In this document: positions 62,501 to 63,517 of the stretch, piece after piece
How positions within the stretch are numbered: the stretch's first letter is position 1
Layout of the letters: every line of letters starts with the position of its first letter
DNA from: Mixta gaviniae
Lineage (GTDB): Bacteria > Pseudomonadota > Gammaproteobacteria > Enterobacterales > Enterobacteriaceae
Length of the DNA stretch: 64,000 nt
Direction: 5' to 3'
NCBI RefSeq assembly: GCF_002953195.1
Contig: NZ_CP026377.1
Coordinates: forward strand, 744,001-808,000
The notes under the pieces: generated by a model
Database searches by the model: none
Seen by the model: the letters and a program-made list of their open reading frames with translations, nothing else
Told to the model about the DNA's origin: nothing
Program-made: the position numbers and the translations under genes

Positions 62501-63517
62501 CGCACCCAGGGGCTGCTCACCAGCCGCACGGAGTATGACCGCCTGGGCAGGATACGGCAGCGCGACGTGTTCAGCGGCAGTGCGCAGCGTCCGGCGCCGC
62601 GACGCTGGTCCCGGCGCTGGGACTATGACTGGCGCAACAATCTGGTCCGCGAGGAGCGCGACGACAACCCGTTCAGCTGGCACCGCTGGCGCTATGACGA
62701 CGCCGGGCGGCTGCTGACCCAGGACGGCACGCTGCCGGGGCAGGAGGCGTGGCGCTGGGACGCGGCGGGCAACCCGCTGGAGAGCGGGGCGCTGCCGGTG
62801 CGCCATAACCGGGTGACGCAGCTGAACGGCTTCCGCTGGCGCTACGACGTGCACGGACGCACCACGGAGAAGGAGAGCGCGCAGGTACGCTGGCGCTACC
62901 GCTACGATGCGGAACACCGGCTGACGGAGGTCATCAGCGAGCCGAAGGACCGCAACCGGCCGCAGGTAGAGGTGAGCTTCCGCTACGACCCGCTGGGGCG
63001 GCGGATCAGCAAAACGCGACGGCAGACGCTTAACGGGCTGCCGCAGGGAAAGGCGGTGACCACGCACTTTGTCTGGGACGGTTTCCGGCTGCTGCAGGAA
63101 ATACACGACGGGGTGCCGCTGACATACGTCTACAGCGATGCGGGCAGCCATGAGCCGCTGGCGCGCATCGACGGCGTCACCGACCCGGAAATCTTCTGGT
63201 ACCACTGCCATCCGAACGGCACGCCGGAGCGGATGACGGATGCGGAAGGGGAGCTGCGCTGGGAGGGACAGAACAGTGCATGGGGCAAACTGCTGCGCGA
63301 GACGGCGCTGCAGGGCACGGGATTCGCGCAGAACCTGCGGATGCAGGGCCAGTACCTGGACCGTGACAAATCTGCCGGGAGCAGATTTGAACAGCGCTTC
63401 AGCGCTGGCCCCAAAGGGGCGAGCCTCATGGATGAGGCGAGTAGTCAGGTCTGCACTACAATCTGTTTCGTTACTACGACCCGGACAGCGGCCGGTTCAC
63501 CCAGCAGGACCCGATAG
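59528..63517 (+). CDS. rhs: PAAR-Rhs polymorphic toxin (frame lost at a hairpin insert before the tip)
   Basis: The frame encodes 1329 residues. It starts with a prePAAR motif (NAARQGDEIIH), a membrane region near 22-75, a PAAR domain at about 100-235 (VTGASNVLINNLPAARA, then VFINGQPAARAKDRTTC), and a second hydrophobic stretch near 245-295. Many YD repeats follow (for example RYDEAGRLIATRNALGEEI), forming the Rhs cocoon. At 63368 the conserved QYLDRD is followed not by TGLHYNLFRYYDPD but by an inserted element, and the frame then runs to a stop at 63517. The normal continuation is present downstream in another frame. As written the protein would lack its toxin. Confidence 0.88.
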   Translation: MSDNNAARQGDEIIHSSVFADITSIVAEGVAYAAIGAAVAAAATVAAPALGAGMAAAGVAAVGSSCVLSGIIGGVLANVAGITDDISAAADSIGNAIFPPSPAGKIVTGASNVLINNLPAARAAGALTAANTPSPQPQPPGSFADYGGMLLAAAQQFGNEMWQPTVASAAAGTSPLEQDKVACEKHSGPQYLAEGSKSVFINGQPAARAKDRTTCEATISDKVSPDVIIGGETLTVRDIKSGKMAGLAMTMIALSLIRGRPGKILKNMPCALAAAGGGMLADMAVNAVFASAHPVHAATGVKVLNDDNELDFALPGRFPLRWQRSYNSLTTRTGLFGLGWATVFDSWLKLEGDEATWFDETGRELRFTLPAVNQVFYSISEGIIVRRNENGDVAIADDDGATWRLFKPTRANPAELRLASLSDEYGNSLETGWDELGRLVRIHDQPCAIDVTLVYDDERFPQRVTGASHFDGTHRWPLMTWRYDARGQLAAAVDASGVTLREYRYNDDGLMVWHRLPGGLESEYRWQKLDHWRVVENRTSTGDGCRIEYDLAAGLTTVKQYDGLSRQHFWNAQGLITRFIDERGESWRYEWDENELLTRRIDPLGNAVSFVYDGMGKRVQETDADGNTRATRWLEHRALPAAVSGPDGAATQFYYDTHHGLARVVDALGQTTLYHRDEYGQVVEEVDAAGNTRRQEYNEAGQIIRMTDCSGRTTRYRYHPLGWLESEIGPDGEETRYRYDAAGRPLQLERAEGWQETLSWNARGLPQAHETADGKRSEFRYDEAGRLIATRNALGEEIRRSWDSRSRLTALHNENGEAYRFRWGADSLLLEEIGLDGVTTRYDYDACGRTVSRTFAAGYPEAITHTFSWSAAGQLLSRATPEMQTRWHYTAAGLPERITQHPALGDGLWSQQAEQALTFEYDALGRVIKEQGENGALSRTYDALGNQTALRLPDGRQLKQLYYGSGHLLSIALDGLPVSDFTRDELHREVSRTQGLLTSRTEYDRLGRIRQRDVFSGSAQRPAPRRWSRRWDYDWRNNLVREERDDNPFSWHRWRYDDAGRLLTQDGTLPGQEAWRWDAAGNPLESGALPVRHNRVTQLNGFRWRYDVHGRTTEKESAQVRWRYRYDAEHRLTEVISEPKDRNRPQVEVSFRYDPLGRRISKTRRQTLNGLPQGKAVTTHFVWDGFRLLQEIHDGVPLTYVYSDAGSHEPLARIDGVTDPEIFWYHCHPNGTPERMTDAEGELRWEGQNSAWGKLLRETALQGTGFAQNLRMQGQYLDRDKSAGSRFEQRFSAGPKGASLMDEASSQVCTTICFVTTTRTAAGSPSRTR
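63368..63447 (+). mobile_element. ~77-nt insert made of four consecutive perfect hairpins inside rhs
   Basis: The element contains AAATCTG-CCGGGAG-CAGATTT, CAGCGC-TTCA-GCGCTG, GCCCC-AAA-GGGGC and GCCTCAT-GG-ATGAGGC, one after the other with two to three bases between most of them. The rhs core is continuous if 80 bases between Asp (63365-63367) and Gly (63448-63450) are replaced by one Thr codon, so the net insert is 77 nt and shifts the frame. It carries no gene and no clear target duplication. Confidence 0.75.

What the first reader, a model, noticed from the sequence alone, without database searches (positions are those of the whole stretch)
63368..63447. Four-hairpin 77-nt element inserted in the conserved core-tip border of rhs
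The insert consists almost only of four back-to-back perfect stem-loops (7, 6, 5 and 7 bp) and sits at one of the most conserved positions of Rhs proteins, between QYLDRD and TGLHYNLF. It shifts the frame by two and separates core from toxin. Each stem is perfect, so it is either recent or maintained. Its RNA would fold strongly in the message. Possibilities: a non-autonomous mobile element of REP/MITE type; a self-removing or ribosome-bypassed RNA, as phage T4 gene 60 hops a 50-nt gap; or a recombination site for swapping toxin tips. The frame stays open through the element without a stop, which is notable for a random insert.
Basis: partly seen in the sequence, partly recalled or inferred. 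Interest (0 to 1): 0.85.

Follow-up and report, generated by a model that had tools for sequence, protein, structure and literature searches.

The report
Four-hairpin mobile repeat inside rhs gene
The 77 bases that split this toxin gene are one copy of a widespread four-hairpin DNA repeat that has inserted again and again into certain sites (ERIC repeats, tRNA, tmRNA and 5S rRNA ends, rhs), mostly in gamma-proteobacteria; what moves it is unknown.

Summary
In detail: a 77-nt insert (63367-63443) made of four perfect hairpins splits rhs at the core-tip border and shifts the frame. It is not unique. It matches Rfam RF02902, has four further close copies in this genome, all at rhs core-tip borders, and relatives in 215 of 392 family genomes and 283 of 5426 E. 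coli genomes. Stems covary while linkers stay fixed. One E. coli allele pair, identical in 552 of 554 bases, differs by a net 77 nt without target duplication. Copies lie mostly between GA and A, recurrently in ERICs, T-loops of tRNA and tmRNA, 5S ends and, in two bacterial families, the same rhs position. Bypass is unlikely: two homologous rhs insertions carry an in-frame stop. Best reading: a non-autonomous structured mobile element, probably the "insertions within ERIC sequences" of 1997 (title seen, paper not), acting at DNA level. No mobilising enzyme was found. A role in displacing gene 3' ends, rhs tips included, is not excluded.

The parts
63367..63443 (+). the 77-nt four-hairpin element (CAAA...GAGTA)
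   Evidence: RF02902 match 63358-63462, 44.4 bits, gathering 39.8; boundaries by comparison with 206 copies and one E. coli filled/empty pair
63367..63389 (+). hairpin 1, 9 bp, loop CGGGA
   Evidence: covariation
63392..63407 (+). hairpin 2, 6 bp
   Evidence: covariation
63408..63420 (+). hairpin 3, 5 bp with a triloop (AAA here; C-GNA-G in 127 of 188 distinct copies)
63423..63438 (+). hairpin 4, 6-7 bp, GGA in the loop region
59528..63517 (+). rhs core reading frame; runs into the element and ends out of frame 74 nt after it
63445..64000 (+). rhs tip in another frame, from the conserved GLHYNLF region on (continues beyond the window)

Best explanation
The insert is one copy of a large, so far unnamed family of non-autonomous DNA elements of about 62-83 nt with four hairpins, dispersed mostly in gamma-proteobacteria. 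Shown by comparison: dispersal, fixed linkers with covarying stems, a net insertion of 77 nt without target duplication at one E. coli site, a junction mostly of the form GA|A, and recurrent target types. Inferred: it moves as single-stranded or cruciform DNA; a protein recognises the two end hairpins (both often carry GGA), cuts after the 3' end CGAGTA, and inserts it between GA and A, often in or beside another hairpin. In this genome one rhs insertion was multiplied together with the core-tip border when orphan tips accumulated in tandem. Its effect here is to split core from tip by frame shift. The enzyme is unknown.
For: Rfam match above the gathering score. Five full-length copies in this genome, all in rhs borders, and two weak ones elsewhere. 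28 of 147 relatives by the Rfam model, 0 of 14 control genomes; by our model 215 of 392 family genomes and 95 of 247 order genomes (the samples overlap). Covariation: 15 of 20 pairs change on both sides, 110 such cells against 35 in shuffles and at most 9 when slid; 371 against 96 and at most 48 in the larger, model-fitted set. E. coli ATCC 25922 is 77 nt shorter than an element-bearing locus and otherwise identical in 552 of 554 bases, inside an ERIC. Target classes of 206 copies; GA at the left end in 188 of 206, GA and A together in 156. DNA-level signs: G-U in 20 of about 1793 paired cells against 11 of 327 in tRNA acceptor stems; C-GNA-G triloop in 127 of 188 (that GNA triloops are unusually stable in DNA is recalled).
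Against: No transposase-like family was seen among the neighbour clusters shown, but only 1.5 kb on each side was looked at. PF01797 (Y1_Tnp) was found in 9 of 20 genomes (8 over the cut-off) and RVT_1 in 12 of 20, most of the 20 chosen for high copy number, so neither explains all present copies; a lost source would not be seen. The right junction at the E. coli site is not clean. Flank folding does not show a hairpin target for ERIC sites. Rfam lists the family as an sRNA. The first alignment came from a script that required hairpin 1, the second was fitted to the structure, and the named loci were found with a pattern that fixed the linkers and the end CGARTAA; all three favour the picture.
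Confidence: 0.7

Rival explanations
1. Structured regulatory RNA: the element is kept because its RNA does something (for example binds a protein through the GGA loops of hairpins 1 and 4, as CsrA-type proteins do), and dispersal is secondary.
For: Listed in Rfam as an sRNA. By simple patterns CNGGA occurs at hairpin 1 in 132 of 206 copies, A(N)GGA at hairpin 4 in 125 of 206, both in 113. The CsrA motif is recalled.
Against: None of the 32 copies under 74 nt has these loops. G-U pairs are rare. Copies lie in many unrelated contexts and on either strand relative to tRNA genes.
Confidence: 0.13
2. Mark of a 3'-end-replacing insertion: the moving unit is larger (new gene 3' end, terminator, an antisense-like copy of the target, then the four hairpins) and displaces old 3' ends of tRNA, tmRNA, 5S and rhs.
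For: In many tRNA, tmRNA and 5S loci an intact gene stands beside a second 3' end that carries the element at its 5' junction (intact tRNA or tmRNA found in 20 of 27 loci). Tandem near-identical units. In G023 an uninterrupted 1535-aa Rhs frame precedes an orphan tip with the element.
Against: In G000 and G002 the full-length rhs core itself is interrupted, and in G023 another orphan tip lacks the element. In G018 the terminator next to the intact 5S is also found in element-free operons. Most ERIC copies are the bare element.
Confidence: 0.12
3. Ribosome bypass or RNA self-removal restores the Rhs protein.
For: The frame is open through the element in the window; strong RNA fold.
Against: Homologous insertions in G002 and G023 have a stop inside. 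One of five copies in this genome is 1 nt shorter. Most classified copies are not in known coding genes.
Confidence: 0.03

Closest known systems
Insertions within ERIC sequences (Sharp 1997; Cromie, Collins and Leach 1997)
   Same: About 70-bp insertions at specific internal ERIC sites (size and sites recalled; only the titles were seen, in the reference list of PMC3696847). 85 of our 206 copies have ERIC-like flanks by a simple pattern.
   Different: The papers were not read, so identity of sequence is not verified. Here the family also has tRNA, tmRNA, 5S and rhs sites and reaches other families.
Rfam RF02902 AaHKsRNA22
   Same: The window copy scores 44.4 bits over 1-101 of 101 positions; gathering score 39.8.
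   Different: Entered as an Aggregatibacter sRNA. It misses copies: G001, G003, G005 and G006 have none by RF02902 but 3, 1, 2 and 2 by our model.
REP/BIME elements with RAYT (Y1) transposases
   Same: Short, dispersed, palindromic, tandem arrays, no coding capacity. Some REPs (CGTC type) also lack a dedicated transposase (PMC3733652, passages).
   Different: Four hairpins instead of one palindrome of 20-40 bp; no RAYT-like neighbour seen; PF01797 in only 9 of 20 genomes.
ERIC and YPAL MITEs
   Same: Small non-autonomous mobile elements of enterobacteria that fold strongly.
   Different: Those have terminal inverted repeats and duplicate TA (PMC2759123); this one has neither and inserts into ERIC.
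tRNA-site integrative elements
   Same: Junction in the T-loop, intact gene beside a displaced 3' end.
   Different: Spacing of only about 0.1-0.4 kb; the two element ends share no core beyond a base or two.

Membership tests
RF02902 (AaHKsRNA22) | score above the curated gathering threshold | tested here: met
   44.4 against 39.8 bits
MITE | terminal inverted repeats | tested here: not met
   ends are CAAA and GAGTA; four separate hairpins
MITE | target site duplication | tested here: not met
   one E. coli filled/empty pair only: net 77 nt, no duplication
REP | single palindrome of 20-40 bp with a GTAG or CGTC tag | tested here: not met
   62-83 nt with four hairpins; definition from PMC3733652, abstract start and passages
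REP | Y1/RAYT transposase in the genome | tested here: inconclusive
   PF01797 in 9 of 20 genomes tested; PMC3733652 itself reports no obvious correlation for REPs
IS200/IS605-derived non-autonomous element | ends shared with an autonomous element that carries tnpA | tested here: inconclusive
   no split ends around a gene seen, but only in loci that were nearly all fetched because they hold the whole element
ERIC insertions of 1997 | same sequence at the same ERIC sites | not testable with these tools
   papers not held; ERIC-like flanks in 85 of 206 copies
Programmed bypassing (T4 gene 60 type) | open, conserved frames before and after a gap that ribosomes skip | tested here: not met
   in-frame stops in two homologous rhs copies and a 1-nt length change; no protein data

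The most novel reading that the evidence does not exclude
The four-hairpin element is the terminal signal of a so far undescribed, target-matched insertion system that replaces the 3' ends of genes. The moving unit carries a new gene end, a terminator and a partly antisense copy of the target mismatched at the insertion point, and enters hairpin sites at GA|A. The same process that stacks tRNA, tmRNA and 5S gene ends would also stack Rhs toxin tips.
Probability: 0.12. Interest if true: 0.9.

Novelty: new variant of a known kind. Interest (0 to 1): 0.6.

Why it matters
A repeat found in 215 of 392 family genomes, with strongly covarying stems and unusual site choice (ERIC, T-loops of tRNA and tmRNA, 5S rRNA, the same rhs position in two bacterial families), has no mobiliser that we could name. 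If it moves by single-stranded hairpin insertion, it is a new class of small element; if it marks 3'-end displacement, it bears on how orphan Rhs tips accumulate. It also shows that this rhs gene is most likely split by a mobile repeat rather than by a programmed device.

Tried and rejected
Ribosome bypass or self-splicing: rejected because of in-frame stops and a length change in homologous rhs copies and mostly non-coding surroundings. Assembly artefact: rejected, five copies in one contig and copies in hundreds of genomes. A two-ended transposon whose ends we see: no half elements around a gene; 216 of 235 first hairpins are followed by the rest, the other 19 being cut by locus ends, decayed or variant. 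This is weak, because nearly all loci were fetched for holding the whole element. One search's right-end detector was faulty and one search replaced it. Between one pair of inverted neighbours lies an ordinary transporter-like frame. An IS4-like transposase frame between array blocks looks like a later insertion (both names by sequence appearance). Neighbour clusters (those with at least 3 loci, top 25 shown) held the element's own translation, rRNA, rhs and some common families such as a LysR-like regulator and an exporter-like protein (6 loci each, names by appearance). Y1_Tnp or RVT_1 as sole mobiliser: not supported. RU-3 of PMC2759123: judged a different element from passages. Hairpin target: mean interaction of the two flanks, real against mismatched pairs, was -4.33 against -2.24 kcal/mol for T-loop (n 23), -2.89 against -1.97 for other (n 67), -1.57 against -1.06 for rRNA (n 6), -2.70 against -2.92 for ERIC (n 78), and -4.97 without control for tRNA-Phe (n 7); no significance test, and rhs, short-flanked and duplicate rows were dropped (181 of 206 kept). 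The first element pattern was wrongly written and found nothing; one search used a corrected one. Literature: AaHKsRNA22 0 papers; ERIC-insertion phrases 0 and 1; searches showed no title or abstract start that describes the family; passages of PMC2229807 and PMC3733652 do not either. The held library lacks most subscription papers.

Full report
What is there. Window 63367-63443 holds a 77-nt insert that folds into four hairpins with short linkers. As DNA it folds at -26.8 kcal/mol (z -6.9, 0 of 200 shuffles as stable); as RNA with flanks z -4.2. The insert lies between the conserved rhs motifs QYLDRD and GLHYNLF. The core frame enters it and ends at 63517; the tip frame is open from about 63445 in another frame.

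It is a known RNA-family match and a repeat. Rfam RF02902 (AaHKsRNA22) covers 63358-63462 at 44.4 bits, above its threshold of 39.8. The genome holds five good copies, all at rhs core-tip borders within about 10 kb, and two weak ones (39.9 and 24.2 bits); the stronger of these lies beside what reads as a tRNA-Phe 3' end, where ARAGORN finds no complete tRNA. With RF02902, 28 of 147 relatives have matches at E 0.001 or better (10 over the cut-off) and none of 14 control genomes. With our own model (38 sequences), 215 of 392 family genomes and 81 of 154 genera have matches (about 12 candidates per genome were scored, so copy numbers are lower bounds), and 95 of 247 order genomes at E 0.0001 (overlapping samples). 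E. coli: 283 of 5426 genomes, 136 with at least 80% of the query. Plasmid records: 173 of 72,556, 167 of them Salmonella. Phage-collection records: 7 of 50,697, all Salmonella-derived. Viral contigs: 3.

Structure is under selection. In 38 sequences (37 distinct) 15 of 20 pairs change on both sides; 97.6% of cells pair (82.6% in shuffles); 110 cells change on both sides (35 in shuffles, at most 9 in slid controls). In 106 model-fitted matches (93 distinct) 371 cells change on both sides (96 in shuffles, at most 48 slid) and only 20 of about 1793 paired cells are G-U, against 11 of 327 in acceptor stems of 48 tRNAs from the fetched loci. Hairpin 3 has a C-GNA-G triloop in 127 of 188 distinct copies; such loops are recalled to be very stable in DNA. 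By simple patterns hairpins 1 and 4 both carry GGA in 113 of 206 copies, all among the 174 of 74 nt or more. Bias: the first set was found by a script that required hairpin 1, the second was aligned to the structure, and 98 of the 206 rows come from loci found by a pattern that fixes the linkers and the right end.

It inserts. In E. coli, 5374 of 5426 genomes match the queA-acpH query and 805 cover at least 80% of it. Three states were read: no ERIC (U14A), ERIC alone (ATCC 25922, O18), ERIC plus element (strains 104 and 2009C-3133). ATCC 25922 has 554 bases against 631; 552 of the 554 are identical. The left junction is GA|CAAA; on the right two bases differ; there is no target duplication. 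That the element was gained rather than lost is inferred from the ERIC consensus. The second E. coli site, pepB-iscX, is another ERIC.

Where it inserts. Of 206 non-identical copies 188 have GA at the left end and 156 have both GA and a final A; 188 have GAGTA or GAATA at the right end. A simple pattern classification gave ERIC-like 85, tRNA/tmRNA T-loop 23, tRNA-Phe T-arm in reverse 9, rRNA operon 7, rhs 9, other 73; 37 of 206 lie within 300 bp of a tRNA or tmRNA (no background was computed). Three more T-loop copies (L234) fell in 'other'. The ten regions were chosen for tandem arrays, which inflates the tRNA share, but 11 T-loop and 3 tRNA-Phe rows come from the named loci. In 20 of 27 such loci ARAGORN finds the tRNA or tmRNA itself (the 27 also included two 5S and two rhs loci). 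By reading, the intact gene is followed by a terminator and then by a second, partial 3' end that carries the element at its 5' junction: tRNA-Ser, -Lys, -Arg, tmRNA, 5S and others. Beside the element a partly antisense copy of the target often makes an outer stem and a small hairpin around the insertion point (L148, L223, L160, L244 and others). Against a general hairpin rule, ERIC flanks do not interact more than mismatched ones. Tandem copies lie about 90 to 380 bp apart.

rhs. The five copies in this genome and those of G002 and G023 are each other's nearest relatives (0.88-1.00 identity among the values shown, best non-rhs relatives 0.80-0.89; no tree was made), so one insertion was probably inherited or carried with rhs borders. 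G541, of another family (f27, Orbaceae by inference from a named Gilliamella locus with like surroundings), has two tandem orphan tips with a different element at the same rhs position (0.88-0.89 to its nearest elements outside L241), so the site was probably hit at least twice. A further G541 copy (L220) lies in reverse beside an rhs core fragment at another position. An exact rhs-junction pattern matches 2 of 392 family genomes, G000 and G023, with one hit of the reversed control pattern; G002 was found; the named collection gave 0. The pattern would miss other codons. In G023 a 1535-aa Rhs frame without the element comes first, then an orphan without it, then the orphan with it; in G002 the full-length core itself is interrupted. 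In both, the core frame stops inside the element. This genome also has another rhs locus with a 1419-aa open frame.

What moves it. Among the neighbour clusters shown, none looks like a transposase; they are the element's own translation, rRNA, rhs and some common families (1.5 kb on each side). PF01797 occurs in 9 and RVT_1 in 12 of 20 genomes, most of them high-copy. The element is nearly always whole in the fetched loci (216 of 235; most were fetched for the whole element). I therefore propose, as inference, hairpin-based single-stranded DNA insertion by an unidentified protein. Few G-U pairs, GNA triloops, shared GGA in the end hairpins, lack of target duplication and the T-arm targets point that way; no enzyme has been shown.

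What is known. PMC3696847 cites Sharp 1997, 'Insertions within ERIC sequences', and Cromie and others 1997 on sequence interruptions in enterobacterial repeats (reference entries seen; the papers themselves not seen). The family is probably what they describe. PMC2759123 (first part and passages), PMC10969869, PMC2229807 and PMC3733652 (passages) describe ERIC, YPAL, RU-3 and REPs, which differ; PMC3733652 notes that CGTC REPs also lack a dedicated transposase. In the listings of searches I saw no paper on the tRNA, tmRNA, 5S or rhs sites.

Verdict.

Noticed in passing
L009, L010, L037, L132 (Pasteurellaceae-type loci): AAGTGCGGT, recalled as the Pasteurellaceae DNA uptake signal, lies directly left of the element in these four copies; a Lonepinella copy (L127) lacks it.
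   Followed up: no
L160 5300-5950: A tmRNA end occurs as direct, inverted and direct copy around a terminator-like stretch, with the element at the last junction: a pattern like template switching.
   Followed up: partly
L171 780-1420: A tRNA-Ser gene has an element-bearing partial copy on each side: a 5' part with its upstream region before it and a 3' part after it.
   Followed up: partly
L237 7030-9624: A 445-aa IS4-like transposase frame (by appearance) lies between two blocks of about 214-bp units near a tRNA-Ser.
   Followed up: no
L277, L278, L279 (G018 rRNA operons): Displaced 5S ends with their own terminator-like hairpins behind an intact or decayed element.
   Followed up: partly
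L220 and L273 (G541): A copy in reverse orientation beside an rhs core fragment, away from the core-tip border.
   Followed up: no
L008 4446-20000: Several tandem orphan rhs tips with small genes after them follow the interrupted rhs; some later borders lack the element.
   Followed up: no
L255 1380-1640: Elsewhere in this genome only the 3' half of a tRNA-Phe-like gene remains, followed by a decayed element copy; it may be the edge of an old integrated island.
   Followed up: partly
window 54254-56959: A VgrG-like gene (by appearance) with an extended C-terminal part stands upstream of the rhs gene.
   Followed up: no
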